From Flavobacterium palustre (GTDB taxonomy: Bacteria; Bacteroidota; Bacteroidia; Flavobacteriales; Flavobacteriaceae): 64,000 nucleotides of DNA. Under the pieces are notes generated by a model. The model was not told where the DNA came from and searched no databases. It saw nothing but the letters and a program-made list of their open reading frames with translations. The stretch spans positions 682,001-746,000 of the forward strand of contig NZ_BMGA01000001.1 of the NCBI RefSeq assembly GCF_014639535.1, in the 5' to 3' direction. A program made the position numbers and the translations under genes. Below, in pieces: positions 9,519 to 30,761 of this stretch (position 1 is the first letter of the stretch; the number at the start of each line of letters is the position of its first letter).

Positions 9519-11084
9519 TTATTGGATTTTTCTAATTGGTTCTTTTACTTTAGAAAGAAAATTATTTCCTTCTATGATTTCTGAATTTTTAAACTCTAAA
9601 AAAACATCAACTGGCTCTTTTTGAAAACAATTATTTAACAAAACATTTTTAGAATTACTTACTTTTATTACTGGCTGATTTACGATAGGTTTTTTAGCCC
9701 ATATAGCATTCAAAACCAAACCATCACAATTTTTAAATTCAAAAGAAGATCCTTTTTCAGTACTGATATCAACATTATTAAAAGTTAAATTTTTCGCTAA
9801 ATCCGAACTGAAACCCTGCTGAGCTTCCAAGTTAATATTAGTAAAAGACAACTCACTAATAGGCATTTCTTCAATACCTTTTATCTCCCCTGCTTTATTT
9901 ATACCAACACCTGAAACATCACTTATATGAATATTTCGAAATATTGGGGTACGATCGGAAACCGGTTCCGGTTTGGATGCGCGGTCATAAAACAAATCAA
10001 AAGTGAATGCATTCCGACTAATATTCCTCATTACAACATTAGAAACCCTGATATTTTCAACCACGCCTCCTCTTCCTCTGGATGCTTTCATGCGAATTCC
10101 GGCATCTGTTCCGTCAAAAACACAATTAGAAATAACTACATTTTTCACACCTCCGGACATCTCACTACCAATCACAACCCCACCATGACCGGCTAGCATT
10201 ACACAATTAGTTATCGTGATATTTTCGCAGGCCTTCCCATAATTTCTACCATTTGAATCCCGTCCTGATTTTATGGTGATACAATCATCGCCTACACTTA
10301 TAAAACAATCTGAAATTCTAACATTACTGCATGACGAAGGATTGATCCCATCAGTATTAGGACCATGCGGGTCTTTTGCAGGATTAAAAATCGTAACACT
10401 ATGTACCACAATATCATTACAGCCTTCAGGATTAATCGTCCAAAAAGGAGAGTTTTGAATACGTATTCCTTCAATTCTTATTTTATTACACTCTAAAAAC
10501 TGGATAAACGGAGGACGAAAAAATTGCTTCTTAAATATTCCTTGGTAATAAGGTTCTACTTTTAAATCTTTATTGGCAGCAGTCCACATTTTTTGCAAAT
10601 CATTTGGTTTTTCGATACCGTTTTTCAATTTAATTTCCTGAAAAATTCTCATTTCTTCCTTCCACCAATCAAAGCCATTACCATCAAGAGTACCTTCCCC
10701 TTTTATAGTAATATTGTCCGCTTTATATGCATTAATCAAAGGGGCGAATGTATTCATAAATACTCCTTCATAACGCACATTTTGAAAAGGCAAATAATCT
10801 TTAAAATCAGAAGAAAATTTTAACGTAGCTCCTGCTTCAAGATAAATTGTAATATTACTTTTTAAGGTAATTGCCCCAGTTAGATAAGTTCCTGAAGAGA
10901 AATACAAAGTTCCTCCTCCTTCCTTTGCTGCCTGATTAATAGTTTTATTGATTAAATCAGTACATTTTATTTTTGCTGTATTATCTGCCCCCAATGCTCT
11001 GATATCATAATTTTTACAATTTGCTGTAATAGACGAAAACAGTATAATTACGGAACAGAGATTTTGAATCAAGGTCTTTTTCAT
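9519..11084 (-). CDS. GH28 polygalacturonase-like enzyme
   Basis: 521 residues with an N-terminal signal peptide (about 1-24). The right-handed beta-helix carries the four GH28 signature blocks in order: NTDG (about residue 248), GDD (about 268), GHGG (about 300) and RMK in place of the usual RIK (about 330). These hold the catalytic Asp residues, the His and the substrate-binding Arg/Lys. Predicted to hydrolyse alpha-1,4 galacturonosyl linkages with inversion, probably periplasmic or exported. It lies 49 bases downstream of the CE8 gene, so de-esterification and hydrolysis appear to be coupled. Endo versus exo mode, and polygalacturonan versus rhamnogalacturonan, cannot be decided from the sequence alone. 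Confidence 0.92.
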   Translation of the reverse strand: MKKTLIQNLCSVIILFSSITANCKNYDIRALGADNTAKIKCTDLINKTINQAAKEGGGTLYFSSGTYLTGAITLKSNITIYLEAGATLKFSSDFKDYLPFQNVRYEGVFMNTFAPLINAYKADNITIKGEGTLDGNGFDWWKEEMRIFQEIKLKNGIEKPNDLQKMWTAANKDLKVEPYYQGIFKKQFFRPPFIQFLECNKIRIEGIRIQNSPFWTINPEGCNDIVVHSVTIFNPAKDPHGPNTDGINPSSCSNVRISDCFISVGDDCITIKSGRDSNGRNYGKACENITITNCVMLAGHGGVVIGSEMSGGVKNVVISNCVFDGTDAGIRMKASRGRGGVVENIRVSNVVMRNISRNAFTFDLFYDRASKPEPVSDRTPIFRNIHISDVSGVGINKAGEIKGIEEMPISELSFTNINLEAQQGFSSDLAKNLTFNNVDISTEKGSSFEFKNCDGLVLNAIWAKKPIVNQPVIKVSNSKNVLLNNCFQKEPVDVFLEFKNSEIIEGNNFLSKVKEPIRKIQ

Positions 11085-11133
11085 TATTATATTTTTTATT
11101 ATTTATTTTAACCCAAAAAGATTTTAGAATAAC

Positions 11134-12105
11134 CTACAACTTCGTTGCATCCAGTGACCATTCACTTTCAACTTTAAAAATTTCATTTAATTGAAATTTT
11201 GCTAGTTGGCTTTTTTTCAAACGGTGAGCCCATTTAACTCGTTTTGAAGTATCGGATCCTGGTCCTTTATTTCCATATTCAGCATAAAAAACAGTCTTCT
11301 CCTGTTCTGTTTTTTCCCAATTATGCCAGCCTTCTGGAAGAATATGCTTTCCCAGAAAACAATCAATAAAAACCACCTTAGCATACTCCCTCCAAGGTCT
11401 TCCTAAATACACTTTATCAACTTCTGGATCAGCAGTTAAGTTGCATTTAAAAAAGACAAAACCAAATTGAGATTCCTTGGGGGTATTCGCTGCTGTAATA
11501 AAGGAATTCAATTTACTATGAATCTCACATGAATCAAAAATAGCTGTGGCAGATCCAAAAATATAATCGGTTGTACCAGCTATATAACAATCTTTAAAAT
11601 ACTGTCGACTATTTTGACCTGCAGCATATAAAGTATCCTGATTTCCCAACAAACTGCAATTCTTGGCAACAAAATAATCGCCTTCAACATGAAGCGCTAC
11701 AGCCTGACCAACTCTTCCTGCTGTATTTTCAACAGTTAAATTTTTTATTCTTATATGATCGCCTGAAATTTTTAAAGTATAACTTGTAAAAGTTCCAATA
11801 GAAGGCTGTCCTGCATAATTATCATAGGTCAAAATCGTTTTTTCTTTGCTCTCTCCTATCAAACTAATATTAGTATGAAAAGAATCTATTAGTACTTTCT
11901 CTTTATAGACTCCGTTTTTAATAAATATCTTTTTCTGAGTGGAAGAAAAAGCTCCACAAGCGGTGATCGCTTGCTGAATTGATTTATAATCTCCTGAGCC
12001 ATCTAAAGCAACTACTAAATTATTTTTGTCATTTTTTGCAAAAACAGAACTACCCGTAATCAGCATTGCTATAACAACCAAATAAAAAAATTTAACTATT
12101 TTCAT
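11134..12105 (-). CDS. Pectinesterase (CE8), single-domain
   Basis: 323 residues with a signal peptide (about 1-23), the normal size for a bacterial pectin methylesterase. The mature protein begins with the family opening VALDGSGDYKSIQQAI. Catalytic motifs are complete: NQDTLYA with Asp157, TDYIFG with Asp180 (Tyr in place of the usual Phe), and LGRPWR with Arg236. It hydrolyses galacturonate methyl esters, giving the demethylated substrate required by PL1 and by the GH28 encoded next. Unlike the two giant CE8 proteins of this window, it has no binding modules and no T9SS domain, so it probably acts in the periplasm on imported oligomers. Confidence 0.95.
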   Translation of the reverse strand: MKIVKFFYLVVIAMLITGSSVFAKNDKNNLVVALDGSGDYKSIQQAITACGAFSSTQKKIFIKNGVYKEKVLIDSFHTNISLIGESKEKTILTYDNYAGQPSIGTFTSYTLKISGDHIRIKNLTVENTAGRVGQAVALHVEGDYFVAKNCSLLGNQDTLYAAGQNSRQYFKDCYIAGTTDYIFGSATAIFDSCEIHSKLNSFITAANTPKESQFGFVFFKCNLTADPEVDKVYLGRPWREYAKVVFIDCFLGKHILPEGWHNWEKTEQEKTVFYAEYGNKGPGSDTSKRVKWAHRLKKSQLAKFQLNEIFKVESEWSLDATKL

Positions 12106-12220
12106 TGTTCGCTTAAATAAAAAGAAAGAATAAAAAATTTAGAATCTATTATTACTTTTGTTTTTAATTTTCAAACTAGCAACTTGAAAGATTCAATTAT
12201 TTGCACTGGATTACAATTTT

Positions 12221-13909
12221 CTACCAAAACGCTGAATATAAAGCTACTAATATACCCCCAATAATCATTGCTCCTACTGCAAAGCCTCTGCTGACATTAA
12301 ACATGTTTGTATCGATTTCTAAACCTTTTGCTTTCTTTCCATTTTTTTCATCTATTAGACTTATCAAAATCATGAGTAATACACAGATTACGAATACAAA
12401 TCCCATTCTGTCCAAAAATGGAATTTCATAAACCATAGATTTGTCCTCCTGTTCTACTAATGTTGCAAATCCAGTACTACTCAAAAATTCCAAATTCATA
12501 ATATTAGGTAGGAATTTAAAAATTACCGATAATACAAATCCTCCAATTGTTGCAAACATTGCCGCATTAGAACTTGTTTTTTTCCAGAAGAAACCTAAAA
12601 TAAACATGGCAAAAATTCCAGGGCTCACAAAACCGGTATATTCCTGAATAAATTCAAAACCTCCTTTTTTATCAATTCCTAACATTGGTGCAATAATTAC
12701 AGCAATAAGCATTGAAACCAAAACTGTAGTTTTACCCACCTGAACTAATTTCTTTTCGGTAGCATCAACATTCAACTTATTTTTATAAATATCCAATGTA
12801 AAAATGGTAGAAATACTATTCACCTTACCTGCCAATGAAGCAACTACAGCTGCTGTTAAAGCTGCAAATGACAAACCTTTTAAACCTACTGGTAATAAAT
12901 TTAATAGTACAGGATAAGATCTATCCGGATTCATTACTCCGTCAGGACCTAACATTTCAGTTTGCAATCCTCCTTTTGAATAAATTACATAAGCAGCGAT
13001 ACCCGGCAATACTACAATAACAGGCATTAATAATTTCAAAAAGGCTGCAAATAAAATTCCGGTTCGGGCTGTTTTCAAATCAGCTCCTAAAGCTCTCTGT
13101 GTGATGTATTGGTTACAACCCCAATAATTTAAATTTACAATCCACATTCCTCCTAATAAAACTGTTAAGCCTGGTAAACTTGGAAAATTAGGATTGTCTT
13201 TTTTGAAAATCATATGAAAATGATCTCCAGATTGATTCATCATATAATTGAATCCTTGTACTATTCCGTGTTGTCCATTCAATTCAGCCACTTTGTCTAA
13301 GGCTAAATAAGTGGTTACTAATCCTCCGAAAATTAGGAAAACCACCTGAACCACATCGGTATAACCAATAACTTTCATACCCCCTAATGCAATAACAATA
13401 GCAAAAAATGCTAATGCATACATACAAAGTGTCAAGTCAATTCCTGAAATACCATTGATAGCCAAGGCACCCAAATATAGGATTGAGGTCAAATTCACTA
13501 TTACGTACAGCAACAACCAAAAAACCGCCATAATCATGGCCACATTTTCATTGTATCTTTCACTTAAAAATTGTGGCATGGTATAAATTTTATTCTTTAA
13601 ATAAACCGGAATAAAAAATACTGCTACAATGATTAATGTCAAGGCTGCCATCCATTCGTAAGTAGCAATGGCTAATCCCATTTTAAAACCATTACCAGAC
13701 ATAGCAATAAATTGTTCTGATGAAATATTAGAAGCAATTAATGATGTACCAATTGCCCACCAGGTCAAAGAACCTTCTGCTAAGAAGTAATCATGGGATG
13801 CCGAAATTGATTGCGTTTTTTTACGTATATAAACCGAATAACCATATCCTGCTACAATAAAAAAATAGACAAGAAAAACCATATAATCGGCTAATTGAAG
13901 TGAGTTCAT
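12221..13909 (-). CDS. Sodium:solute symporter (SSS family), probable sugar or uronate uptake
   Basis: 562 residues with about 14 hydrophobic segments spread over the whole length, as in SGLT-type carriers. Family features include an early unwound helix region (GTSLIASNISSEQFIAMSG), a long helix after YTMPQFLSERYN, and the conserved WGCNQYITQRALGA segment typical of sugar members of the SSS family. It should couple sodium entry to solute uptake across the inner membrane. It heads the cluster transporter-CE8-GH28-esterase, so galacturonate or a short galacturonide is the likely substrate. The family is certain and the substrate inferred. Confidence 0.9.
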   Translation of the reverse strand: MNSLQLADYMVFLVYFFIVAGYGYSVYIRKKTQSISASHDYFLAEGSLTWWAIGTSLIASNISSEQFIAMSGNGFKMGLAIATYEWMAALTLIIVAVFFIPVYLKNKIYTMPQFLSERYNENVAMIMAVFWLLLYVIVNLTSILYLGALAINGISGIDLTLCMYALAFFAIVIALGGMKVIGYTDVVQVVFLIFGGLVTTYLALDKVAELNGQHGIVQGFNYMMNQSGDHFHMIFKKDNPNFPSLPGLTVLLGGMWIVNLNYWGCNQYITQRALGADLKTARTGILFAAFLKLLMPVIVVLPGIAAYVIYSKGGLQTEMLGPDGVMNPDRSYPVLLNLLPVGLKGLSFAALTAAVVASLAGKVNSISTIFTLDIYKNKLNVDATEKKLVQVGKTTVLVSMLIAVIIAPMLGIDKKGGFEFIQEYTGFVSPGIFAMFILGFFWKKTSSNAAMFATIGGFVLSVIFKFLPNIMNLEFLSSTGFATLVEQEDKSMVYEIPFLDRMGFVFVICVLLMILISLIDEKNGKKAKGLEIDTNMFNVSRGFAVGAMIIGGILVALYSAFW

Positions 13910-14349: not shown

Positions 14350-15240
14350 TTAAAACTTATATTGCAACAAGATTTCATTTGTGTTTTTGGCACTTGCCAG
14401 CTGAGGCATCGTACTTATCTCAAACGAATAACCTAGCAGAAAATGTTTTCCAAGTAGTACTGATGCAAGTGATCCATAAGAATTAGATGTTCTATACATT
14501 ACACCAATATTAAAATTATTTTCAATTTCTAACATAGTTGTAAAATCTGCTATAACAGAACTATCTTTCGAATAACGCATCATTACTGATGGTTTTAAAA
14601 TTAAATCAGTACTGTAACTATTAAGCTTAATATCATATCCTCCACTCAAATAAAATTGTGGACTCTGTGAAACAACCATTGCATAATCTGATTTATTAGC
14701 TGCCCTATTTGTTTTTAAAAACATCGGAACTGATAAAGACACATACATCGATTCGTTTTTGTAAACCGCTCCAACACCAACATTTGGATTAAAATTACTG
14801 ATTGATGCTAAAGCTTGATCTGATTCTACTCCGTAATTTTGTAAACCAGCCGTATTTACATTATAAAAATTACCTCCTGCTTTAATCCCTAAATAGATAG
14901 ACTGATTTGTTCCTAAATCTAATTTATACGATAAATCAAGAGCTAAGTAAGTTTGCTTTTCAATAAACGTTTTATCGTTGAGTACATCAAGACCTATTCC
15001 TAAGTTATGACCCAAAGGAGTTGAAAAAAATACGGTTTGTGTCTCTGGGGCATCTTCGATACCAGACCATTGACTTCTAAGTGTACCACTAACTATTGTC
15101 TCATTGTCGACACCGGCATAAGCTGGATTAACAATGTTCATATTATAACGATAAAAAGCCGAGACACTTTCTTTCTGAGCAAATGCTGCACTACTCATTA
15201 CGAGTAGTGCGCATATTACCATTTTATTAATTGTATTCAT
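14350..15240 (-). CDS. PorP/SprF-family type IX secretion outer-membrane protein
   Basis: 296 residues with a signal peptide ending AAFAQ. The mature protein has the family signature near its N-terminus: YRYNMNIVNPAYAG, then LRSQWSGIEDAPETQ, followed by amphipathic beta-strands and a C-terminal aromatic residue (QYKF) as in an outer-membrane barrel. PorP/SprF proteins pair with T9SS cargo that has type B (CHU_C) sorting domains. SprF is required for surface display of the SprB gliding adhesin in Flavobacterium johnsoniae. Here the gene starts 23 bases after the stop of the 1817-residue adhesin, which has exactly that type B domain, so it is almost certainly its dedicated partner. Confidence 0.93.
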   Translation of the reverse strand: MNTINKMVICALLVMSSAAFAQKESVSAFYRYNMNIVNPAYAGVDNETIVSGTLRSQWSGIEDAPETQTVFFSTPLGHNLGIGLDVLNDKTFIEKQTYLALDLSYKLDLGTNQSIYLGIKAGGNFYNVNTAGLQNYGVESDQALASISNFNPNVGVGAVYKNESMYVSLSVPMFLKTNRAANKSDYAMVVSQSPQFYLSGGYDIKLNSYSTDLILKPSVMMRYSKDSSVIADFTTMLEIENNFNIGVMYRTSNSYGSLASVLLGKHFLLGYSFEISTMPQLASAKNTNEILLQYKF

Positions 15241-15263
15241 TAATTAATTTCCTTTTAAGCATA

Positions 15264-18200
15264 TTATTTAGCAATGTACAACCAACCTTGTGAGTCGATA
15301 TTTCCATCTCCCCCTAAATCAATTTGATAAAAATAAGTTCCAACTGGCACAAACTGATTGTTTCGTTGGTTTCTTCCATCCCATTGATTTTGGTAATTAT
15401 TCGAAGAAAATATCTGAACTCCTTTAGTATTAAAGACCCTAACAACTGTATTTGGATATTCCTCTATATTTTGGATTACCCAATAATCATTAATTCCATC
15501 ACCATTTGGTGTAATTGCCTGAGGTACTTGTAATGAAGAATCAAGAATTTCAAACGTAAAAGTAGTACTAACACTTCCTCCTGAATTAGTAGCTGTAATA
15601 ACATAATCTGCTTCTGGAGTAATATACTTAGGTTTACCACTTATTTCACCTGTATTTGTATTCAAATTTAGACCTGGAGGCAAACTTGGTGTTACAGAAT
15701 AACTTACTACCGCACCTCCAGCTACTGTAGGGAAAAAAGCCATAACTACTTTATCCTTTTTAAAAGTAATTGAATCTGAATAATATAACCCAACAGGAGG
15801 AATATCGTTAACAGTAATGGATACATATGTAACAATACTACCTGACAATAAAGTCGCTGTAACGGTATAATCAGTCGCAGCTGTAACTGTAGTTGGTGTT
15901 CCAGATATAATTCCTGTTGTTGTGTCTAAACTCAATCCTGCTGGTAAAGCTGGACTTACACTATAACTTACCACTGTTCCACCGCTTACTGTTGGGTTCA
16001 AGGCTGTAATAGCTGTTCCTTTAGTAAATACATTTGGAGTTGAATAACTCAAAGAACTTAGCGCAACATCATTTACTGCAATAGATACTGTTGCCGTTGT
16101 ACTTCCTCCTGTATTGGTTGCAGTAACTACATAATTCGCTGCTGTTGCAATCGCTGTTGGCGTTCCTGAAATTACTCCGGTTGTAGTATTCAAACTCAAT
16201 CCTGCTGGTAAAGCTGGATTTACACTATAACTTACCACTGCTCCTCCACTTACTGTTGGATTCAAAGCTGTAATAGCTGTTCCCTTAGTAAATACGTTTG
16301 GTGTAGAATAACTCAATTCACTCGGTACAACATCATTTACAGTAATAGATACTGTTGCCGTTGTACTTCCTCCTATATTGGTTGCGGTAACTGTATAATT
16401 CGCTGCAGCTGCAATCGCTGTTGGTGTTCCTGAAATTACTCCTGTTGTAGTATTCAAACTCAAACCTGTTGGTAAAGCTGGATTTACACTATAACTTACC
16501 ACTGCTCCTCCGCTTACTGTCGGATTCAAGGCTGTAATAGCTGTTCCTTTAGTAAATACATTTGGAGTTGAATAAATAAATGCACTTGGTGCTACATCAT
16601 TTACTGCAATAGATACTGTAAAATTGGTACTTCCACCTGTATTGGTAGCGGTAACTACATAATTCGCTGCAGCTGCAATCGCTGTTGGTGTTCCACTAAT
16701 TACCCCTGTTGTTGTATTCAAACTCAATCCAGATGGTAAAGCTGGATTTACGCTATAACTCATTACTGTTCCGCCGCTTACTGTCGGGTTCAAGGCTGTG
16801 ATTGCTGTTCCTTTAGTAAACACGTTTGGAGTTGAATAACTCAATGCACTTGGTGCAATATCATTTACTGCAATAGATACTGTAAAACTAGTACTTCCTC
16901 CTGTATTGGTTGCAGTAACTACATAATTAGCAGCTGAAATAACTACTGTTGGCGTTCCAGAAATTACCCCTGTTGTAGTATTTAAACTCAAACCTGCTGG
17001 TAAAGCAGGATTCACAGCATAACTTACTACTGCTCCTCCACTTACTGTTGGAATTAAGGCTATTATAGCTGTCCCCTTAGTAAATACGTTTGGAGTTGAA
17101 TAACTCAATGCGCTTGGTGCTACATCATTTACGGCAATAGATACTGTAAAATTGGTACTTCCTCCTGTATTGGTTGCTGTAACTACATAATTCGCTGCTG
17201 CTGCAATCGCTGTTGGCGTTCCTGAAATTACCCCTGTTGTTGTATTCAAACTCAATCCTGATGGTAAAGCTGGATTTACACTATAACTTAACACTGCTCC
17301 TCCGCTTACTGTTGGGTTCAAGGCTGTGATAACTGTTCCTTTAGTAAATACATTTGGAGTTGAATAACTCAATGCACTTGGCGCAACATCATTTACGGCA
17401 ATAGATACTGTGAAATTGGTACTTCCTCCTGTATTCGTTGCTGTAACTACATAATCTGCTGCTGCAATCACTGTTGGTGTTCCTGAAATTACTCCGGTTG
17501 TAGTATCCAAGCTTAGTCCTGCTGGTAAAGCTGGACTTACGCTATAACTTACAACTGCTCCTCCACTTACTGTTGGGTTCAAGACTGTAATAGCTGTTCC
17601 TTTTGTAAACACGTTTGGAGTTGAATAACTCAATGCACTTGGCGCAACATCATTTACTGCAATAGATACTGTAGCTATTGTACTTCCTCCTGTATTGGTT
17701 GCGGTAACTGTATAATCGGTAGCTGTAAGTAATTCAGATGGTGTTCCTGAAATTACTCCGGTTGTAGCATCCAAGCTTAGTCCTGCCGGTAAAGCTGGAT
17801 TTACGCTATAACTTACAACTGCTCCTCCGCTTACTGTTGGGTTCAAAGTTGCAATAGCTGTTCCCTTTGTAAATACGTTTGGAGTTGAATAACTTAAATT
17901 AGTTGGTGCTACATCGTTTACTGCAATAGATACTGTGAAGCTAGAGTTTCCTCCAGTAGTAGAAGCGGTAACTACATAATTAGCAGCTGAAATAACTACT
18001 GTTGGCGTACCAGAAATTACCCCTGTTGTAGTATCCAAGCTTAGTCCTGCTGGTAAAGCTGGACTTACACTATAACTTACTACAGCTCCACCGCTTACTG
18101 TTGGATTCAAGGCTGTAATAGCTGTTCCTTTTGTGAATACGTTTGGAGTTGAATAACTCAATGCACTTGGTGCAATATCATTTACTGCAATAGATACTGT

Positions 18201-20717
18201 AAAATTGGTACTTCCTCCTGTATTCGTTGCTGTAACTACATAATCTGCTGCTGCTGCAATCACTGTTGGTGTTCCTGAAATTACTCCGGTTGTAGTATTC
18301 AAACTCAATCCTGATGGTAAAGCTGGATTTACGCTATAACTCATTACTGCTCCGCCGCTTACTGTCGGGTTCAAGGCTGTGATTGCTGTTCCTTTAGTAA
18401 ATACATTTGGAGTTGAATAACTCAATTCACTTGGTGCTACATCGTTTACTGCAATAGATACTGTAAAACTAGTGCTTCCTCCTGTATTGGTTGCGGTAAC
18501 TATATAATTCGCTGCTGCTGCAATCGCAGTTGGCGTTCCAGAAATTACCCCTGTTGTAGTATCCAAGCTTAGTCCAGCCGGTAAAGCTGGATTTACAACA
18601 TAACTTACTACTGCTCCTCCACTTACTGTTGGGTTCAAGGCTGTGATTGCTGTTCCCTTTGTAAACACGTTTGGAGTTGAATAACTCAATGCACTTGGTG
18701 CAATATCATTTACTGCAATAGATACTGTAAAGCTAGAGTTTCCTCCAGTAGTAGAAGCGGTAACTACATAATTAGCAGCTGAAATAACTACTGTTGGCGT
18801 TCCAGAAATTACCCCTGTTGTAGTATCCAAGCTTAATCCTGCCGGCAAAGCTGGATTTACGCTATAACTTACTACTTCTCCTCCGCTTACTGTTGGGTTC
18901 AAAGCTGTGATTGCTGTTCCCTTAGTAAACACATTTGGTGTAGAATAGCTCAATGCACTTGGTGCAATATCATTTACAGTAATCGATACTGTAGCTATTA
19001 TACTTCCACCTGTATTGGTTGCGGTAACTGTATAATCTGTAGCTGTAAGTAATTCAGATGGTGTTCCTGAAATTACTCCGGTTGTAGTATCCAAGCTTAG
19101 TCCTGTCGGTAAAGCTGGACTTACGCTATAACTCACTACTGCTCCTCCACTTACTGTTGGAGTCAAAGCTGTGATAGCTGTTCCTTTTGTAAATACATTT
19201 GGTGTGGTATAACTCAACCCAGATGGAGCCTCAATAGTAGCTTTATCTGCTTTGACCATAACATTCGATAAAACTGTGGCTGTTACATCAGCAGGATCAT
19301 TATGTTTTGGACCATTTACATTAGGAAACCAACGTAAATAAACCGTATCTTTTCCTTCTGCTTCGGCAGGAAGAACTCCACCTATTGAAGTGATAGAATT
19401 TATATTAATAGTTGTCAAAGCTGAAACATTGACAAAGTTCACACCATCTAAAGAATATTGAAAAGTCCATTCATCACATCCATAATAGTATCCTATTAAA
19501 CCAGAAGACACATTAATATTTTTATAACCCACCGTAGATAAAGTTGTCATAAAATAGAAAAATTCTCCCCTATCGTTATTCCAGACACAAAAACCATTTG
19601 TCCCAGCTCTGTTTTGAAGTCTAACGTTTGGCGCTACAGAATTGTCCGTAACATGATAAGCAGCAAGAGTAGGTCTATTAGAAGCCTCAGCATACAATTC
19701 TGCCACTCTAGGATTAGCATATTGATCATTTTTAAATGTCCAAGCTGCAATAAAAGGTTCATTAGTAAATGTACCAGTAACGTTTGTGTTAGAATTTATA
19801 GTAACGGATTTACTTAAATCCGTAGAGAAATCAGACCAATTACTAAATTTAATAATTGGATTTTGCAGAGCAGTAACCGTTACATTTGTACCGTTTTCAT
19901 AGATCGAGAAGCCCCCATCTTTTCCAGGAGGCGCAATTGAAAACTCTCCAAATCCTAATGCTCCCAGAGAAGTAGTTGTTAACGTATACGTTGGGATTGC
20001 TGCAAATTCTGCAATCAAAATAGTATTGGCATTAATAGTAAATGTATAAGGATTTGCTGTTGAAATTGTGGTACCGTTTCCATCAGTCCATCTCGAAAAT
20101 GCATATCCGAAATTTTTAGTAGCTGTAAGAGTTATTGAACTTCCAGCGGTGTATGATGCCGCTGACGGATTAGCATCAATATTTCCAGAATTTGATGGAG
20201 TCACAGAATTTGATAATGTATATAATACTGCACTAGCATCATTAGTAACTTTTTCAAAATAATCGACATTACATACATACGTATATCCTACCGCAGGCCT
20301 AAAAACCAGATATAAATCATGAGTTCCTGTAGTTTGCGTGATAGCTGCTGAAAAAATCTGATAAGTAGTCCAAGAACCTGTTGCTTTTATATTTGCAGTA
20401 CCTATTAAAGTACCGTCAACAGCATCAATTCTAAATTCAATGGTACCCACTGCAGTACCCACTGTTGTAGAAGCTCTACTTGCTGCTGCCACATCAAATC
20501 GGGTATCATATTGACTAAATTCAAGCCCTGCAAATTTAACCCAATATCCATTTTTTAGATTTCCAATATTTTTACCTCCTGATGCAGTTGCTGTGTTTTC
20601 AATAGACACACCATTAAAAGCACTATAATTTTCGGCTTCATATCTGGTAATGGTTTCCGAGTACCCCATCACTGTAAAAAACAACAGCAACAAGGTAATT
20701 AATAATTTATTTTTCAT
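15264..20717 (-). CDS. Giant surface adhesin: CBM6 head, fourteen Ig-like repeats, T9SS type B (CHU_C) sorting domain
   Basis: 1817 residues. Order: signal peptide (1-20); CBM6-like module (about 22-160); two InlB/Bacteroides-type beta repeats (about 165-320); discoidin-like sandwich (about 322-494); fourteen He_PIG-type Ig-like repeats of 88 residues (about 496-1727); C-terminal CHU_C type B sorting domain (about 1730-1817) starting PQAITPNGDGINDYW. No catalytic domain is visible. The first 490 residues are homologous to those of the two CE8-containing giants in this window, so the pectin-enzyme head has been joined to an adhesin stalk. The PorP/SprF gene 23 bases downstream fits export and anchoring by T9SS. 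By analogy with SprB and RemA it may bind pectin at the cell surface or support gliding on plant material. That role is inference. Confidence 0.92.
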   Translation of the reverse strand: MKNKLLITLLLLFFTVMGYSETITRYEAENYSAFNGVSIENTATASGGKNIGNLKNGYWVKFAGLEFSQYDTRFDVAAASRASTTVGTAVGTIEFRIDAVDGTLIGTANIKATGSWTTYQIFSAAITQTTGTHDLYLVFRPAVGYTYVCNVDYFEKVTNDASAVLYTLSNSVTPSNSGNIDANPSAASYTAGSSITLTATKNFGYAFSRWTDGNGTTISTANPYTFTINANTILIAEFAAIPTYTLTTTSLGALGFGEFSIAPPGKDGGFSIYENGTNVTVTALQNPIIKFSNWSDFSTDLSKSVTINSNTNVTGTFTNEPFIAAWTFKNDQYANPRVAELYAEASNRPTLAAYHVTDNSVAPNVRLQNRAGTNGFCVWNNDRGEFFYFMTTLSTVGYKNINVSSGLIGYYYGCDEWTFQYSLDGVNFVNVSALTTININSITSIGGVLPAEAEGKDTVYLRWFPNVNGPKHNDPADVTATVLSNVMVKADKATIEAPSGLSYTTPNVFTKGTAITALTPTVSGGAVVSYSVSPALPTGLSLDTTTGVISGTPSELLTATDYTVTATNTGGSIIATVSITVNDIAPSALSYSTPNVFTKGTAITALNPTVSGGEVVSYSVNPALPAGLSLDTTTGVISGTPTVVISAANYVVTASTTGGNSSFTVSIAVNDIAPSALSYSTPNVFTKGTAITALNPTVSGGAVVSYVVNPALPAGLSLDTTTGVISGTPTAIAAAANYIVTATNTGGSTSFTVSIAVNDVAPSELSYSTPNVFTKGTAITALNPTVSGGAVMSYSVNPALPSGLSLNTTTGVISGTPTVIAAAADYVVTATNTGGSTNFTVSIAVNDIAPSALSYSTPNVFTKGTAITALNPTVSGGAVVSYSVSPALPAGLSLDTTTGVISGTPTVVISAANYVVTASTTGGNSSFTVSIAVNDVAPTNLSYSTPNVFTKGTAIATLNPTVSGGAVVSYSVNPALPAGLSLDATTGVISGTPSELLTATDYTVTATNTGGSTIATVSIAVNDVAPSALSYSTPNVFTKGTAITVLNPTVSGGAVVSYSVSPALPAGLSLDTTTGVISGTPTVIAAADYVVTATNTGGSTNFTVSIAVNDVAPSALSYSTPNVFTKGTVITALNPTVSGGAVLSYSVNPALPSGLSLNTTTGVISGTPTAIAAAANYVVTATNTGGSTNFTVSIAVNDVAPSALSYSTPNVFTKGTAIIALIPTVSGGAVVSYAVNPALPAGLSLNTTTGVISGTPTVVISAANYVVTATNTGGSTSFTVSIAVNDIAPSALSYSTPNVFTKGTAITALNPTVSGGTVMSYSVNPALPSGLSLNTTTGVISGTPTAIAAAANYVVTATNTGGSTNFTVSIAVNDVAPSAFIYSTPNVFTKGTAITALNPTVSGGAVVSYSVNPALPTGLSLNTTTGVISGTPTAIAAAANYTVTATNIGGSTTATVSITVNDVVPSELSYSTPNVFTKGTAITALNPTVSGGAVVSYSVNPALPAGLSLNTTTGVISGTPTAIATAANYVVTATNTGGSTTATVSIAVNDVALSSLSYSTPNVFTKGTAITALNPTVSGGTVVSYSVSPALPAGLSLDTTTGIISGTPTTVTAATDYTVTATLLSGSIVTYVSITVNDIPPVGLYYSDSITFKKDKVVMAFFPTVAGGAVVSYSVTPSLPPGLNLNTNTGEISGKPKYITPEADYVITATNSGGSVSTTFTFEILDSSLQVPQAITPNGDGINDYWVIQNIEEYPNTVVRVFNTKGVQIFSSNNYQNQWDGRNQRNNQFVPVGTYFYQIDLGGDGNIDSQGWLYIAK
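15537..19229 (-). repeat. Fourteen tandem 264-bp repeats (88-residue Ig-like units)
   Basis: Thirteen units are nearly identical, each with the core YSTPNVFTKGTAITALNPTV, then GLSLDTTTGVISGTP, ending VSIAVND. The last unit (nearest 15537) is divergent. Unit 7 is one residue short. Variable patches recur in non-adjacent units: TVVISAANYVV in units 2, 5 and 9, and SELLTATDYTV in units 1 and 6. This mosaic points to gene conversion or unequal crossing-over within the array. Confidence 0.93.
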
Positions 20718-20977: not shown

Positions 20978-21622
20978 TTAAAAAAGAATCTGATGTTTTT
21001 TTTGGATACGTTCCTTTGACTTCACTGTTCTAGCAGTAAATTCTGTACTTGTATATGATTTTACCGCACCACTATATTCAAAAGTAAAATCGATATCTTC
21101 CTCAGTAGAAACCAATTTACTATTTGTATAATGACTAGCTACACCTTTACCTACGAAATTTACTTCATAGTTATTGCTATTTTCAACAACAGTAAAAACA
21201 CCACTAGTTGGTTTTATACTAACGCCATTAGCTACCATTAAACCCTTATCAGTAGATGTAATATTCAATCCTAAAATAGATTCACTCCATGATGTAAAAG
21301 TAAAGGGAGTTCCTTCTGAAAACTCACCTAAATTGTAAGTCCCAACAGCTAATTTTTTATCAGTTGATGTTAATAATTCAAAATAAACAACAGCAGAAGT
21401 TTCCCCTGCTCCCGAAAGCGTTTCAGAACGTACCGTAAAGTCAATATTATAAGCATTACCTACCTTACCATAATTTTCTATGTAGCCTTGAGTAAGATTA
21501 ACAGTTTGATCACCCATGGTGAGAGCCCCCTGATTATTTGTGTTTTGATTACTATCATCACTAGAACAAGCGATAAAAAAAGTAACTAAAACCAATGAAA
21601 ATAATTTGATTAAAGATTTCAT
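20978..21622 (-). CDS. Lipoprotein of unknown function
   Basis: 214 residues with a lipoprotein signal peptide: lipobox FIAC, Cys19, followed by SSDDSNQN. The mature part is predicted to be rich in beta-strands and has no motif I recognise. It ends in a basic tail (VKSKERIQKKHQ). The gene begins 76 bases after the giant CE8-PL1 gene and is probably co-transcribed with it. The other CE8 giant, at 138-4706, is likewise followed directly by a lipoprotein gene, which suggests that a small surface lipoprotein accompanies each. The two lipoproteins share no obvious similarity over the part that can be compared. Confidence 0.8.
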   Translation of the reverse strand: MKSLIKLFSLVLVTFFIACSSDDSNQNTNNQGALTMGDQTVNLTQGYIENYGKVGNAYNIDFTVRSETLSGAGETSAVVYFELLTSTDKKLAVGTYNLGEFSEGTPFTFTSWSESILGLNITSTDKGLMVANGVSIKPTSGVFTVVENSNNYEVNFVGKGVASHYTNSKLVSTEEDIDFTFEYSGAVKSYTSTEFTARTVKSKERIQKKHQILF

Positions 21623-21698: not shown

Positions 21699-24600
21699 TT
21701 ATTTTATGATAATTTTAGTAGACATTCCTGTTTTAGCACTTTGAATAAGATAATATCCTGAAGGCAAATCACTCACAGAAATCTCAGTTTCAACATCTTT
21801 AGTTTCTACTTGTTTAACCAATTTACCAGTTATAGAAACTATATTCACAGTATCATTTTCAACAGAAGATTTTAATGTAACATTACTTTTAGCAACAGTT
21901 GGATAAGCATAAAATTCTTTTAATTTTTTCCAACGTGCATATACAGAAACATTTTCTGTTTGATTTGCATCAAATCCAGTTACTGGATTTGAATGGTTCT
22001 CATCTAAAAACCAACCCATAAAACGATACCCTCTACACTCAGCATCTAACAACTCGTAAGTTGATCCGATTTCTATTGTTTTCAAATTAGAATTGATTGC
22101 CAATTTAGGCATGTTTAAGTATGAAACCGTATAAGTTGTTGGCGCCGCATTGATTGGTCTATTATTACCCCCATCGCCCCAAAAAGCGTACAATGTTTGT
22201 GTTCCTGTAGCGGTTGCTGCGATAGACTTTATTACTCCAGGTACTGTTGGCGAATTTGACCAACCAAAGAAAGTATATCCTTCTAAGACCGGAGTTGGTA
22301 ATAATGTTACACCACCTTGTCTGTATTCTACCGGCGCAAGACCTGTTATAGGTTGTCCGTCAATTGAATTTAGATAAGTAATTGGAGAAAATGTAGCCGT
22401 TGTTTTTAACCATCTTGGATCTCCAATAGCTCCAGCGGTTGAAGAAGCGGTTGCCAAAGGCGAATTTTGAGAAAAACTAAAATCTCCTAGAGCTGGATTT
22501 GGGAACACCAATGCAGTAAGACCCAATCCACTAACTGTTTTCACATTAGTTTCCGTTTTAGTAACAGTTCCTTTTACAAGAATAGAAGTAACCCCATCCA
22601 CTAAATTATTATCTAAAGTAGCTGCTCCTGCACCACTAGCATGGTTTGAATAGAACATGTAAGTTGCTTTTGGACTATCCAATTTTTGTTGCATCACATT
22701 ATTCTTGAAACTATAGACAGAAGCCGAAGCATAAGGATTATTCACATATACTAAAGCATTCGTATCCATACTACCTACATTATAAATGGTATTACTTTCT
22801 ATCTGAACATTGATTGCTTGAGCAGTGTTGGCACTGTTTTGCAATGCAATGAAGTTCAACGCTTTGTCGAAATTGTAAATCGTCGAATTTTTCACAGTGA
22901 TTGCTTTTAGCAAATGTGCGTCCGGTTGGATAAAATTATAGCCTAATGCAGCCGAACCATCTACAATACAATTATCTAAAGTGATTGCATCAATCGCATT
23001 TGCACTACTACCTTCCGTTAATAACAAACTTTGTTTGATTCCTTTGATAGTAGCATTTTTGATTTCTAATGAAGACAAACTAGCTCCATTTTTTAATTGA
23101 ATAAAGTTTGAATTAGCATTAGTTAAATCAATAGCCACTCCATCGAAACTGAAACCAGCTGTTACAATTGTAGCATTATCAGTATAGAAAGTAGTTGCTA
23201 AAATTGGCTTAGCACTTCCATCCGGAACAAAACGATATTTGTTATTTGTAATAGCTAATGGAGTTGTCGAAGTATAGGTACCAGCAGCCATAATAAATTT
23301 ACTACCATCTTCGGCTTTATTGTATTTCTCAACAAAATCAGTTGGATTAACATAAACATCTAAACTCCCGTTTTGATTATCTGTGATGTTTTTAACTATT
23401 CCGTATAAATACACTTCAACGTTTGTATATTGACCATCAAGAGTAGTTAAATTACCATCAATCGGATTATTAGGATTCAAACCTTTTTCCGTTTCCCAAT
23501 CATCAGGCATCCCATCACCATCAGTATCTACAGGCGCAGGTGCAGTAGGTAAAACAGGCCATCCACCTGTAGCAGAAGGAGTATCAATATACCCATTAGT
23601 ACTACCGTTACCTCCATTCATAATAGTTGCATTTCCATTACGAGTATCATTAACGGCTCTTTGATCCACCTCATCTCTATATAAGCTTGCCCCGACATAA
23701 TCTAAAACTAATTCATACGCTTTGGTTGCGCTATGAGTTGTAATTTCACCTGGTGCATGCGGAGTAGCAGTACGCATAGCCGCTTTATCAGCATCACTTA
23801 CTGGTAATTGGCTGTAGTGAAACTGGTCATATACTCCATAAGTCCAGTTGTCCTGAGTAGCACGTGTAGATCCTACAACATAATTACCATCTATATAAAA
23901 TTTACCCCAAATACCATAGAGAGCATGTGTTGGGTCTAAACTTCTACCTGTGGACAGTATTCTTTCCTTGGTAGAATTAGAAGTTCCCGGCCCTGGTTTC
24001 CAATAATTATTTACCAAGTTCACGTTCATGGCATCACCACCGTAACAGCTATTCGATCCCCAGTTGTAAATCACATTGTTACGAATATCTAACAAGCCTT
24101 CTAAAGGTACTGTACGACCTGCGTACTCCCCTAAACGCGGATTACGGCTATCATGATGCGCTATCAAATTATGATGAAAAGATGCTTTTAAACCACCCCA
24201 AATTCCACCAAAACCATGGCCACCTTTAGCATGAACCGAATTACGAAGACTCTCCGAAATTACAGACCATTGCATGGTGAAATTTTTATTTTCATAAAAA
24301 GAAGCACATTCATCGGTTGACCAACTCACAGAACAATGGTCAATCATAATATTCTCTTGGAAACGTCCTCCTAAAGCATCATTTTCTATATCATGAGTAT
24401 CCCCCATTCTAAAGCGCATATAACGCACAATGACATTGTTACCACGAATTTTAGCATTGTAATCCTGTAAACAAATACCTCCACCCGGAGCTGATTGTCC
24501 TGCAATGGTAATATTATCTGTAATATTCAATTCACTTTGTAACTTAATGTTACCAGAGACTTTAAACAATACAATTCTAGGACCACTTGTATTAATCGCT

Positions 24601-27600
24601 GCACGTAAAGAACCAGCACCAGAGTCATTCAAATTAGTCACATAAATCACTTTACCACCACGACCTCCGGTTACATATTTACCATAACCTTCGGCACCCG
24701 GGAAGGCAGGAACTCCGGTTGGACTACCCCCCCCTCCAGTATTGCTACTGCTTACATCAATCTTACCAAAACCTGTAAAAAATTGTGGATGGGTTGTACT
24801 ATCATAGGATCCTTCAGCTAATTCAACGCCATTAAGTGTAAATGTTTTAACCTTAACAATCGTATTTAAAACAGCTTTTCCTGTCTCTGTAAAATTAATG
24901 TTCAGGTTTTCTCCGGCTGCCTGCTCATGGCTAAAAATAACCTGATTATCCTGACCTACATTAATAGTTCCGGAACCAAATGCATTAGCTGAAGATCCTT
25001 CTAATGCAGTGATATAATTAAGCCCATCATATTTAGTACTTTTCTGTGTTAAATCCCAAGTACCGTTAAACTCTGTATTATCTCCTTTTATAAGTAATAC
25101 TCCTGTATTTACTACACTACCCTGACCTATATTGAGTGGAATTATATTTCCGTTACCTGAAATTGGCCCTGACAATGTCATTGTAGTTTGATCAGCATTG
25201 GTAGATTGCATATCAAATCTCACATTCCCTGAAATCACCAGTGGTGCTTCCAGTGACATTCCGGCTGCGCCGGTATAATAATACATACTAGTACCTTCTT
25301 TTAAGATTAAACTTCCTGTTGCTTTATGAGCACCTCTTAAACGTAATTTTCCACTGCCTGAAAAAGTAAGATCAGCAGCAAAAATAGTAGCGGTTGTTTC
25401 AATTTCCTTTGTCACGGAAACTTGTTTACCCGCTTCAGGGAAAACTGCTGGGTCAAAGTTTGTTGCAACATCCCAACTTTTGTTTGTAGCTCCTGTAAAT
25501 ACATAATCAAAATTAGTTGGTGGAATTACCGAATCAGGCTGATTATTTCCATTTTCACCCCAAAAAGCATAATATATCTGGTTTCCTGTAGCAGTAGTTG
25601 CTATTGCAGTAATTGTATTAGGCGTTGTTGCTGAAGTTGACCATCCGTAAAATGTATAACCTTCTAATGCAGGTGTTGGCAATGTTACCGCTGTACCTTC
25701 TGTATAAGTTATTGGAGTTAAATTAGCTATTGCAACATTCCCAATTGAATTCATATAATTAATTGAAGATGTCACTACTCCACCAACTGTAACCTTACTT
25801 AAAGCACTTAAACCTCCATAAGCATTGGCTGCCTGAACAGTATATTCATGAGAACCTGTAAGTGTTTCAGTATCTGTATAAGTAGCATCTGTTGTAATAG
25901 CTAAGAATTTTCCATCTCTACAAACCACATAACAAATAGCGTACTGATTAGCATTCCAAGAAAGAGCATTATTCTGTCCCATTACTAAATTGGCTGGAGC
26001 AGCAATTTGCTCAACAATTTCTAACGGATTCCATTTATCAGCACCACTTAATACATTTTCAATGGTATAAGCGTCTGCTTGCTCTTTAGTCAATACTGGA
26101 TTATAATTTCCAGTTGTAGGAACACCATTTAATAAAAACACATTGGTTCTGTTGTCTAAATTTACTTTTACTCCACTTCCATTCACACTATTATATTCTG
26201 CAAAAAGAGCCGGTAATGTTCCCATACTCGCCCAACCAGTGGCATTTGGTTCCACCAACATTTTAGTATTCAAATAAACTGCTCTTGGTGAATTTTGCCA
26301 AGGACGGCCTAAATAATAACTTGTTGCAGCCGAAATAGTACAGTTATTGAAAATATACCCATATTGTACATTAGCATCATGGTTTGGAGCCACGATATAA
26401 CCTGGAGCTACTGAAACTAAATTACATTGCTCGTACCAATGTGTTCCTCCTCCACAAATAAAATCAACATCTCCTTCAATGGTCGAATTATAATAGAACG
26501 TTCTGTTACCACCTGTAACTTCTGTATCCTGCTTACTTCTTAATCGTACACCATTATAAACATTACGGTCACCGGCAGGATTTATTGCAGGACGTTGTCC
26601 TGATGTAGTAATTCCATCTTTATGTTCAACGGTTACATTTTCCATATATAAGTCATTGGCTTCAATGGCCAAAACTGCATTCTTAATCCCCCATCCTGGA
26701 TTACCTTGAAGGATAACACCATCTTTAGATTGAGCAATCAAAGAGACATTATTTTTTCCGGCAGGAAGCGTTAACAATACTGATTGTGGATTGGTTCCAT
26801 CACCACCTAAATTATAAGTTCCATTGGTAATAAACACCAAATATCTGGATGCTGAATTACTCGGAGCTTTAGTAAAAGCTTCTGCAATTGTTTTTACATA
26901 TTTACCTGAAGCTATCTGATCATCAGTTGCATTAGCATCAACAATTAAATCAAAATTACGCTTAGCAGGAATTGGTTTCTGCATCGTTGTAAAAGATAGA
27001 TTTACAGCTGCTGCATTGTTAGCTGATAAATCTTTAACAAATCCTGCAGGCAAACTAAAAGTATATTGTTTGTTATATTCTAATCCAAAATAACTAAACT
27101 TTACCGTTTTGTTTACAAATTCTGCAGTCAGATTTTTTCCGTTTAAAGTTGCCTGACCTGCACCTAATTGTACTGATTCGTCATAATTTAAAATAATCGT
27201 TCCGCTGGCACTAGCTGTTGTAGCACCTTCAACAGGGATACTGGTTTGTAATACCGGAGCAGTAGTATCCACTACTAAAACCTCATCGGCTTTTACAATA
27301 ACGTTTGAAATAATTGTAGCTGTAACATCTTGTGGGTCTTGAGCTAGAACCCCATGTTTTGGACCATCCACATTAGGGAACCATCTCAAATAAATTTTTT
27401 CTTTCCCTTCAGCTTCAGCTGGTAATACCCCACCTATTGAGGTTATCGAATTTGTATTTATTGTTGTTAATGCAGACACATTTACAAAATTCACCCCATC
27501 CAAAGAATATTGAAAAGTCCATTGATCTGCACCATAATAATAACCTATTAAACCAGAAGACACATTAATATTTTTATAACCTACCGTAGATAAAGTAGTC

Positions 27601-28925: not shown

Positions 28926-30602
28926 TCACTGGATTATTTTTACCTGATTTTTAACTGCTTCTTCTAATTTCACTTTATCGAAAGCGATTTTATTAGTAGT
29001 TGATTGCAACGAAATGGCTTTGGTTTCAGCACCACCCACCCAGAATAATTGGTTTTCTCCTGTGGCTTTAAAACTTTTAATTTTTACATTTTGACTATTA
29101 GAAATACTCGCTGCAATTCCCGGTTTGTCGAGTCTTAAATCGATATTTTCAAAATCAATTTTGCCGGCATAATTCATTTGGATACCAATATCAGAGCGGA
29201 TAATCATGTTTTTGAATTGCAGATTTTCAACAGGCATTTCGGGAATTCCCATAATTTTCAATGCTTGTTTAGCTCCGTTGACATAAATGTTTTTGAAGTA
29301 CATATTTCTGAATGCCGGAGTGGTTTCTGAAACTGGCATTTTATCAACAATTACTTCGCCTGTTTGCGGATCTTCTTTAATCGATTTTTCAAAATAGTAC
29401 AGGTTAAAATTGATGGCATCGGTTGGAATATTATTCATTCGGATATCTTCCATCCAAATATTCTCAACCACACCACCTCTGCCTCTGACAGACTTAAAAC
29501 GCAAACCACAATCGGTACCGTTAAAGGTTAAGTTTTTAACAAATATATTTTTAACTCCTCCTGACATTTCACTGCCAATCACAAAACCACCATGAGCATG
29601 ATAGACTACACAATCGGTAATTACAAATAATTCGGTTGGTTTTCCACGGTCTCTTCCTTCTTTATCTTTTCCTGATTTGATACAAATGGCATCATCACCC
29701 ACATCAAAGCGACAATTGGTTACTGTTCCTATTCTACAGGATTCTATATCCAGTCCATCACCATTTTGAGAATACCAGGGATTGCGAATTGTTAGATTGC
29801 TTAAAGTTAAATGTTCGCACATCAGCGGATTGACATTCCAGGCTGGAGAATTTTGAAAAGTTACACCGTCTAGCAACAGCTTTTTGCAATTAACAAGGCT
29901 TACCATTACAGGGCGAAGTGCCTGTTTGTAAGGAGACATATTTTCAACCGTAGGTGTTTTAGGTAGCTTATCTTTTTCTTCGTTCCCTATATATGCACCT
30001 TCTGACGGATACCAAATTCTACCATCCTTAGACAAAACGCCTCCTGATTTCACCAATTCGCCCCATTGACCTGCGGTCATTTTACCAATTTTAACCGGAC
30101 GCCAGGCTGAACCATTTCCGTCAAAAATACCCTGACCGGTAATGGCAATATTTTCCAAGCCCACTCCCATAATAGGAGATTCGCAACGAAGCACCTTATT
30201 TCCCTCAAAATAAGATTCAATCAGTTGGTACTGATTCAAATCGCTGGTAAAAGATATGAAAGCACCATTTTTAGTGTGCAAATTCACATTGCTTTTCATT
30301 TTTATAGGGCCGGTAGTCCATAAACCAGCAGGAATAACAACTACTCCTCCACCTGATTCAGAGCATTTTGTGATTGCAGCATTAATCGCTTTAGTGCAAA
30401 GTTCTTCGGTGTTTGGAACGGCACCAAAATCAACAATATTCAAAGTATCCGCTTTAAACCTTGGAATCTGTACCGCAGGCATTTCAAAAGGAAGATTACT
30501 TTTTACAGCTGGCTTATTTTGAGCAAAAATTGTATTACTATAAGAAATAGCTGAAAACATTAGCACAGCAATAAAGAAGTTGGTTTTAATTTTTATCATC
30601 AT
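28926..30602 (-). CDS. GH28 family enzyme, exo-polygalacturonase-like
   Basis: 558 residues with a signal peptide (cleavage near TIFAQN, about residue 27). GH28 motifs: NGDGLD in place of NTDG (about residue 281), GDDAICIK (about 302), AHGGFVIG in place of GHG (about 338) and RFK in place of RIK (about 365). The NGDGLD variant and a long insertion before the helix core (about residues 165-240) occur in exo-acting members, so release of galacturonate from chain ends is plausible. It is separated from the preceding GH105 gene by a 195-bp gap containing a repeat element, so it may have its own transcript or be a distal operon member. Confidence 0.88.
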   Translation of the reverse strand: MMIKIKTNFFIAVLMFSAISYSNTIFAQNKPAVKSNLPFEMPAVQIPRFKADTLNIVDFGAVPNTEELCTKAINAAITKCSESGGGVVVIPAGLWTTGPIKMKSNVNLHTKNGAFISFTSDLNQYQLIESYFEGNKVLRCESPIMGVGLENIAITGQGIFDGNGSAWRPVKIGKMTAGQWGELVKSGGVLSKDGRIWYPSEGAYIGNEEKDKLPKTPTVENMSPYKQALRPVMVSLVNCKKLLLDGVTFQNSPAWNVNPLMCEHLTLSNLTIRNPWYSQNGDGLDIESCRIGTVTNCRFDVGDDAICIKSGKDKEGRDRGKPTELFVITDCVVYHAHGGFVIGSEMSGGVKNIFVKNLTFNGTDCGLRFKSVRGRGGVVENIWMEDIRMNNIPTDAINFNLYYFEKSIKEDPQTGEVIVDKMPVSETTPAFRNMYFKNIYVNGAKQALKIMGIPEMPVENLQFKNMIIRSDIGIQMNYAGKIDFENIDLRLDKPGIAASISNSQNVKIKSFKATGENQLFWVGGAETKAISLQSTTNKIAFDKVKLEEAVKNQVKIIQ

Positions 30603-30657
30603 TAATCTCTATTTTATTTTTTATGACTATCCGTTTCTTTTACCAATTATTGTGAAT

Positions 30658-30761
30658 GGCACACAGATGAAACGGATTTTAATGGATTATCGCAGATTGT
30701 GATTTACCAAAGAGCTATGAAAAATCCGTTTTTATCTGTTCAATCAGTGTCATCTGTGGCC
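30658..30761. repeat. Imperfect inverted repeat of the 'ATCTGTGGC' intergenic type
   Basis: The left arm GGCACACAGATGAAACGG and the right arm, which ends in ATCAGTGTCATCTGTGGCC, are imperfect reverse complements. Inner segments AACGGATTTTAATGG and AAAAATCCGTTTTTATC also pair. It sits between the GH105 and GH28 genes. From memory, similar CAGAT/ATCTGTG inverted repeats are scattered through flavobacterial genomes. A genome-wide copy count would confirm this. Next to it, GTCCGAAGCGGAC (30777-30789) forms a short hairpin just after the GH105 stop. Confidence 0.55.

What the first reader, a model, noticed from the sequence alone, without database searches (positions are those of the whole stretch)
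14350..20717. A pectin-locus adhesin with an enzyme-type binding head, 14 repeats, a type B sorting domain and a dedicated PorP/SprF partner
The 1817-residue protein shares its first 490 residues (CBM6, InlB repeats, discoidin-like sandwich) with two CE8 enzymes in the same region. It replaces the catalytic part with an Ig-like stalk and a CHU_C domain, and a PorP/SprF gene follows after 23 bases. Established: type B T9SS proteins such as SprB need a SprF-type partner, and RemA is a polysaccharide-binding gliding adhesin. Inference: this is a pectin-tethering or pectin-gliding adhesin encoded within the degradation locus, so attachment and digestion share one recognition module.
Basis: partly seen in the sequence, partly recalled or inferred. 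Interest (0 to 1): 0.78.

Follow-up and report, generated by a model that had tools for sequence, protein, structure and literature searches.

The report
Pectin-binding surface tether with barrel anchor
A soil bacterium's pectin-eating gene cluster encodes a very long cell-surface protein that carries the same sugar-binding head as two pectin-cutting enzymes, and a partner membrane barrel that lacks both known attachment tails, so it probably tethers pectin to the cell rather than driving gliding.

Summary
The anatomy is confirmed. The 1817-aa protein has a CBM6 + two InlB-type + β-sandwich head, 14 repeats of about 88 aa, a type B T9SS sorting domain, and a PorP/SprF gene 23 bases downstream, in a pectin locus. 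The head is 62-66% identical to those of two CE8 proteins with type A sorting domains.

Gliding is disfavoured. In five Flavobacterium genomes, carriers beside a PorE gene end in PR[FY]F (26 of 26; 0 of 15 others), and the F. johnsoniae carriers of cargo published as moving end in Cys tails. This carrier and 45 relatives have neither end and no detected PorE gene: a third anchoring class I found no experiment on.

A second case supports the design. In four Flavobacterium starch PULs a He_PIG + type B protein, with a SusF_SusE head in three, precedes a carrier of this class; in two a type A neighbour has a SusF_SusE head too.

The shared-recognition claim is qualified. The adhesin was found in 2 of 399 genus genomes; its CBM6 has Asn where related modules have an aromatic ligand contact (role recalled), and CBM6 was swapped between adhesin and enzyme in F. 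pokkalii. The sandwich changed least. Pectin binding is untested.

The parts
15264..20717 (-). Type B T9SS protein, 1817 aa, with glycan-binding head
20253..20639 (-). CBM6 domain (aa 27-155); the position matching 1gmm Tyr34 is Asn53
19764..20243 (-). Two InlB-type (Flg_new_2) repeats, about aa 159-318
   Evidence: boundaries approximate
19245..19763 (-). Beta-sandwich-like domain (aa 319-491), no Pfam match, 83% and 79% identical to the two CE8 copies
   Evidence: strands in the AF2 model
15564..19244 (-). Stalk of 14 He_PIG Ig-like repeats, about 88 aa each
15273..15530 (-). CHU_C / TIGR04131 type B sorting domain (aa 1730-1815)
14350..15240 (-). PorP/SprF carrier without C-terminal tail
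21699..28748 (-). CE8 plus pectate-lyase-like (PelZ profile, below cut-off) protein with the same head, type A sorting domain
138..4706 (-). CE8 protein with the same head, TSP3 repeats, type A sorting domain
20978..21622 (-). 214-aa protein, lipobox-like start by eye, no family found; follows the CE8-PL1 gene
35487..40624 (-). SusD (PF07980) and SusC-type TonB receptor (PF07715) genes
28926..33728 (-). GH28, Glyco_hydro_88 and GH43 genes
9519..13909 (-). GH28, CE8 and sodium:solute symporter genes downstream of the pair

Best explanation
It is a locus-specific surface glycan-binding tether. A pectin-enzyme head was duplicated onto a long Ig-like stalk with a type B sorting domain (shown by sequence and trees). 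The T9SS exports it, and its dedicated barrel collects and keeps it at the outer membrane (inferred from published type B pairs). Because the barrel has neither the Cys tail that couples SprF to the gliding track nor the PR[FY]F end seen on PorE-linked carriers, it is probably neither propelled nor fixed to the cell wall, but held by the barrel alone and free to move in the membrane (inferred). It would hold pectin, or pectin-rich wall, near the SusCD importer while type A enzymes with the same head cut it (inferred).
For: Type B domain and PorP/SprF pair over curated cut-offs; one match to the carrier-class profile in this genome; its sorting domain is 24-37% identical to the 7 other carrier-adjacent ones of the genome, below the 43% pair that did not cross-talk in PMC12618676. 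Tail ends: 41 carriers of 5 Flavobacterium genomes, PR[FY]F with PorE 26 of 26, others 0 of 15; residues beyond this carrier's end: median 13 (28 PR[FY]F), 16 (27 Cys), 0 (this clade of 45, range 0-10). Full or near-full heads in 399 genus genomes: 31 enzyme-length frames, 2 adhesins; CE8 checked in 29 of 30 loci. Starch PULs repeat the design. SprA and GldK genes are present.
Against: No binding, localisation or expression data. Asn53 replaces the aromatic of the ligand site of a xylan-binding CBM6 (role recalled), so CBM6 may bind something else or little. The carrier model failed (pLDDT 30), so the tailless end rests on sequence alone. The tail rule is a Flavobacterium rule: in the wider sample 39 carriers of normal length have other ends, median 17 residues, with no detected PorE, so tails do not sort all carriers into three classes. 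PMC9143113 postulated that pairs without PorE are mobile, the opposite forecast. Clade passengers are varied, metallopeptidases among them. Tail statistics are not corrected for relatedness.
Confidence: 0.55

Rival explanations
1. It is a gliding adhesin that moves on the SprB track and lets cells crawl on pectin, using a track contact other than the Cys tail.
For: No PorE gene beside it, which PMC9143113 took as the mark of mobile type B proteins; cysteine-substituted SprF still made short track contacts (PMC12635249); F. johnsoniae expands on pectin and needs GldJ for it (PMC8056085).
Against: No Cys in the mature carrier and no C-tail; the three F. johnsoniae carriers (identified by gene order) whose cargo was reported to move, one of them in 3% of cells only, have Cys tails; sorting domain 26% identical to SprB's and 28% to Fjoh_4750's.
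Confidence: 0.13
2. It is a static adhesin fixed to peptidoglycan through a PorE protein encoded elsewhere.
For: Nearest F. johnsoniae carriers by sequence are PorE-linked ones (30% identity); Fjoh_3952 is static (PMC12618676).
Against: It lacks the PR[FY]F end present on the 26 PorE-linked carriers of the 5 genomes; no PorE detected in 44 of 44 clade loci with room.
Confidence: 0.13
3. The head no longer recognises pectin; it is a recent lineage-specific adhesin for another glycan, and its place in the pectin locus reflects where the head was copied from.
For: Found in 2 of 399 genus genomes; CBM6 diverged to 55% identity with Tyr to Asn and Phe to Cys/Gly changes; solved CBM6 relatives bind xylan, beta-glucan or agarose by their titles.
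Confidence: 0.17

Closest known systems
SprB-SprF and the type B pairs of F. johnsoniae (PMC12618676, PMC12635249, PMC9143113)
   Same: Type B sorting domain with a cognate PorP/SprF carrier encoded directly downstream.
   Different: Carrier lacks both the Cys tail and the PR[FY]F end; head is an enzyme-type glycan-binding module; gene sits in a pectin locus. None of 11 carriers of the F. johnsoniae-type genome G136 reaches the scores of this class.
Surface glycan-binding proteins of PULs (SusE/SusF, SGBP-B, CHU_1279 in PMC12016534)
   Same: PUL-encoded non-catalytic glycan-binding domains at the cell surface.
   Different: No lipobox; type B T9SS export with its own barrel (inferred); 14-repeat stalk.
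RemA of F. johnsoniae
   Different: Type A domain handled by PorV, and a lectin domain (PMC12618676); not PUL-encoded as far as recalled.
CBM6 modules of xylanases and other hydrolases (1gmm, 2v4v, 1w9s)
   Different: Asn in place of the aromatic at the Tyr34 position; carried by a protein without a catalytic domain found.

Membership tests
T9SS type B substrate | CHU_C / TIGR04131 C-terminal domain | tested here: met
T9SS type B substrate | Secretion and surface exposure | not testable with these tools
   N-terminus looks like a Sec signal by eye; no experiment
PorP/SprF carrier | PF11751 / TIGR03519 over cut-off | tested here: met
SprF-type gliding carrier | Cys-X-Cys (or Cys-XX-Cys) in a C-terminal tail | tested here: not met
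   only Cys is residue 10, in the signal region; no tail
SprB-type gliding adhesin | Helical movement on the cell surface | not testable with these tools
   needs microscopy
PorE-linked static pair | porE-like gene directly downstream | tested here: not met
   next gene is a sodium:solute symporter (PF00474) after 440 bases
PorE-linked static pair | PR[FY]F carrier end (rule derived here, Flavobacterium only) | tested here: not met
Surface glycan-binding protein of a PUL | Encoded with SusC/SusD | tested here: met
   SusD 14.8 kb away on the same strand
Surface glycan-binding protein of a PUL | Lipoprotein anchor | tested here: not met
   no Cys in the first 26 residues, read from the sequence
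Surface glycan-binding protein of a PUL | Binds the glycan | not testable with these tools
   needs binding assay
CBM6 | Sequence family and fold | tested here: met
CBM6 | Ligand-contact residues (Tyr34, Trp92, Asn120 of 1gmm; roles recalled) | tested here: inconclusive
   Trp and Asn present, Tyr replaced by Asn
RemA-type adhesin | Type A sorting domain | tested here: not met

The most novel reading that the evidence does not exclude
PULs use a one-head, two-exits rule: a glycan-binding head is placed both on type A proteins (released or LPS-linked) and on type B proteins held by a third, tailless class of PorP/SprF barrel that is coupled neither to the gliding track nor to the cell wall, giving a T9SS-built surface glycan-binding protein. 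In Flavobacterium the carrier ends form a readable code for the fate of type B proteins: Cys tail to track, PR[FY]F to PorE, none to membrane only.
Probability: 0.33. Interest if true: 0.8.

Novelty: new variant of a known kind. Interest (0 to 1): 0.62.

Why it matters
If true, it joins glycan digestion and surface attachment in one gene neighbourhood, and it offers a concrete candidate for the unexplained link between pectin loci and pectin-driven spreading reported for Flavobacterium (PMC8056085), at least in the two species found to carry it. The carrier-end code would let readers of Flavobacterium genomes predict whether a type B adhesin moves, is fixed, or floats. It also names a carrier class, present in 48 of 299 sampled family genomes at the threshold used, that was not seen in the F. 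johnsoniae-type genome and that I found no experiment on.

Tried and rejected
Rejected: that the 45 close carriers are mainly for PULs. Only 4 of 45 fetched genus loci (783 kb) hold a SusD gene, 2 of 40 family loci (733 kb, E about 1e-26), and 0 of 24 PorE-class loci (412 kb) (the loci are cut at different lengths).

Rejected: that the class carries lectins only. Genus passengers include SUEL lectin (8 of 32), L-type lectin (2) and SusF_SusE (3), with 25 of 48 families shown, and a reprolysin-type peptidase in 1. Family passengers include reprolysin-type peptidases (5 of 35) and none of those lectins among 25 of 36 families shown. PorE-class controls (19 scanned of 22) show none of those lectins among 25 of 28 families shown, but do show one galactose-binding-like domain and NPCBM-associated domains in 2.

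Led nowhere: AF2 of the carrier alone (pLDDT 30). The sandwich profile's only PDB match was at chance level (E 0.5), and the sandwich was not tested as a fold by itself; the structure comparison was filled by CBM6-like rows. A search for a Bacteroidota-type promoter (motif recalled) upstream of the adhesin found none. Carrier against PDB: no match to E 0.1.

Limits. The PorE profile was made from 4 sequences of this genome and can miss distant PorE genes, so 'no PorE' outside the genus is weak. The five genomes of the tail table have 50 listed carriers: 41 were counted; left out are the window carrier itself, 5 fused ones over 420 aa (two held, three not fetched) and 3 of normal length that I did not fetch. 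In the wider survey 108 carriers were read and 14 fused or long ones set apart. Nine further carriers have PRF-type ends (one PRFF, eight PRFL) without a detected PorE, outside the genus. In one search L276 and L278 resolved to the same carrier, so 39 distinct carriers were read, for the last 14 residues only; several have short acidic tails. 13 of 45 genus passengers were not scanned, being truncated or without an ORF. In one search one partial match (G347, 199 bits) lies between the class and the rest and was not used. The 12 weak sandwich matches were not examined. Orphan type B proteins of this genome were not searched for.
Full report
What is there. The window is a 64-kb piece of a 3.97-Mb genome whose named relatives in a head search are Flavobacterium (23 of 24 titles; one says Flavobacteriaceae). 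The two genes are real: a 1817-aa ORF at 15264-20717(-) and a 296-aa ORF at 14350-15240(-), 23 bases apart. The large protein has CBM6 (27-155), two InlB-type repeats, a β-sandwich-like region without a Pfam match (319-491), 14 He_PIG repeats and a CHU_C domain. NCBIfam calls its end a type B sorting domain and the small protein PorP/SprF family, both over cut-off. Repeat landmarks lie 88 residues apart, one step 87. The locus holds SusC- and SusD-type genes and pectin-type enzymes by Pfam.

Shared head. Residues 1-495 align with the N-termini of the CE8-PL1 protein (21699-28748) and a CE8 protein (138-4706); head identities are 66% and 62%. Both end in type A sorting domains. So one head type is used on type A and on type B proteins of one locus.

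Distribution. A scan for two conserved head peptides returned 24 loci; in 23 the matched head is on a CE8 protein and in one, F. pokkalii (L009), on the same adhesin, cut off by the contig end. In 399 genus genomes there are 33 full or near-full heads (one covers positions 160-488 only); two are adhesins (this genome and G342), 31 have enzyme-length frames. Of 30 loci held from that scan 29 carry CE8; the exception is the G342 adhesin. G342 is F. pokkalii by matching contig position (base 85527); its carrier end of the gene lies on another contig end (L063), so the gene cannot be seen whole there. Half-heads (CBM6 + one InlB) occur in seven of the 24 loci: in three on GH28 proteins with type A domains and in four on proteins that match the window's PL1 part. 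The adhesin is thus rare, and in what I examined the head keeps company with pectin enzymes. Twelve weak sandwich matches in other long proteins were not followed.

Origin and exchange. By domain the adhesin head is 55% (CBM6), 60% (InlB) and 83% (sandwich) identical to the CE8-PL1 head. In the InlB + sandwich tree the two adhesins and the two CE8-PL1 heads of this lineage form one group (99/95), which fits duplication from that enzyme. In the CBM6 tree the F. pokkalii CE8-PL1 groups with the adhesins (100/100). Forcing it together with the window CE8-PL1 is rejected for CBM6 (p 2e-66); for InlB + sandwich, forcing it with the adhesins is rejected more weakly (p 0.024) (groups named after the trees were seen). 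So CBM6 has moved between adhesin and enzyme.

Carrier ends. PMC12635249 (sections 6 and 13 part 1, and passages) shows that a Cys-X-Cys tail on SprF bonds to GldK and is needed for gliding but not for export. PMC12618676 (sections 5 and 12) shows SprB and Fjoh_4750 moving, an Fjoh_1123 sorting domain moving in 3% of cells and otherwise static, and Fjoh_3952 static with a PorE gene beside its carrier gene. I compared carriers of this genome and of G136, taken to be F. johnsoniae UW101 from its 6,096,872-base contig (length recalled), from gene order and from sorting-domain identities that resemble the paper's (68, 44 and 23% here; 68, 43 and 26% there). The carriers matched to moving cargo end in Cys tails; the PorE-linked ones end in PRFF. 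Across 41 carriers of five Flavobacterium genomes a PR[FY]F end coincides with a PorE gene in 26 of 26 and no other end does (0 of 15) (not corrected for relatedness). In the wider order sample the picture is less tidy: 39 carriers of normal length have other ends, median 17 residues past the window carrier's end, and no detected PorE. The window carrier stops where its last strand should end, has no Cys after the signal region and no PorE gene next to it.

A class, not an oddity. In the genus scan 45 other carriers score at least 242 bits before a gap. None has a detected PorE gene (44 with room to see one), and they run 0-10 residues beyond the window carrier's end, median 0. A profile finds the class in 48 of 299 family genomes at E 1e-75; 39 distinct carriers read there show no detected PorE and no Cys in the last 14 residues, though some have short acidic tails. 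In G136 none of 11 carriers reaches the class's scores.

Second PUL case. Four genus loci (L076, L084, L087, L091) have SusC-like and SusD genes, a GH13-type amylase and GH97 followed by a He_PIG + CHU_C protein and a carrier of this class (SusC by similarity to the window's). SusF_SusE domains are found in the type B proteins of L084, L087 and L091 and not at threshold in L076. In L084 and L087 a type A neighbour also has SusF_SusE; in L084 the two heads are 70% identical over 326 residues. L084 and L087 look like close relatives, so these are not four independent events.

Mechanism. My reading: SprA exports the protein (SprA and GldK genes are present), its own barrel keeps it in the outer membrane, and with no handle for track or wall it floats as a long glycan tether beside SusCD. 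Anchoring by the barrel follows PMC9143113 (passages) and PMC12618676; floating is inference. PMC9143113 postulated mobility for pairs without PorE, the opposite forecast. PMC8056085 (abstract and passages) reports pectin-driven expansion that needs GldJ, without induction of known gliding proteins; this protein could be part of such a link only in species that have it.

Literature. Searches (20 of 35 papers listed) listed no paper whose title or start of abstract describes a PUL-encoded type B glycan-binding protein or a tailless carrier class; I read five papers in part (named above, with passages of PMC12016534). That is the extent of the novelty check.

Noticed in passing
window 7462-8560 (-): A PorV-type (PF19572) gene inside the pectin locus is broken across frames; a full-length PorV match lies elsewhere in the genome. 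PorV is the carrier for type A proteins.
   Followed up: partly
window 21659-21687 (-) and about 20752-20779 (-): A terminator-like hairpin after the CE8-PL1 gene and, by eye only, another shortly before the adhesin start (sequence; not listed), so the adhesin may be a separate transcription unit.
   Followed up: no
L009 1930-9015: The F. pokkalii CE8-PL1 protein carries an adhesin-type CBM6 on an otherwise orthologous head: a domain swap.
   Followed up: yes
L084 13493-14734; L087 13526-14743: Type A proteins next to the starch-PUL type B proteins have SusF_SusE heads too.
   Followed up: partly
L011 13507-15768, L016 13232-15520, L032 13377-15635: GH28 proteins of pectin loci carry CBM6 + one InlB repeat of the same kind and a type A sorting domain.
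   Followed up: partly
L074, L080, L083, L086, L088, L090: Several tailless-class pairs sit in a recurring neighbourhood of genes of similar lengths; its genes were not identified.
   Followed up: no
L276, L277, L278, L281, L304, L310: One genome of another genus (G612) holds six matches to the tailless carrier class.
   Followed up: no
L114, L126: PorP/SprF domains in long frames with repetitive C-terminal extensions (993 aa, and a 1589-codon frame).
   Followed up: no
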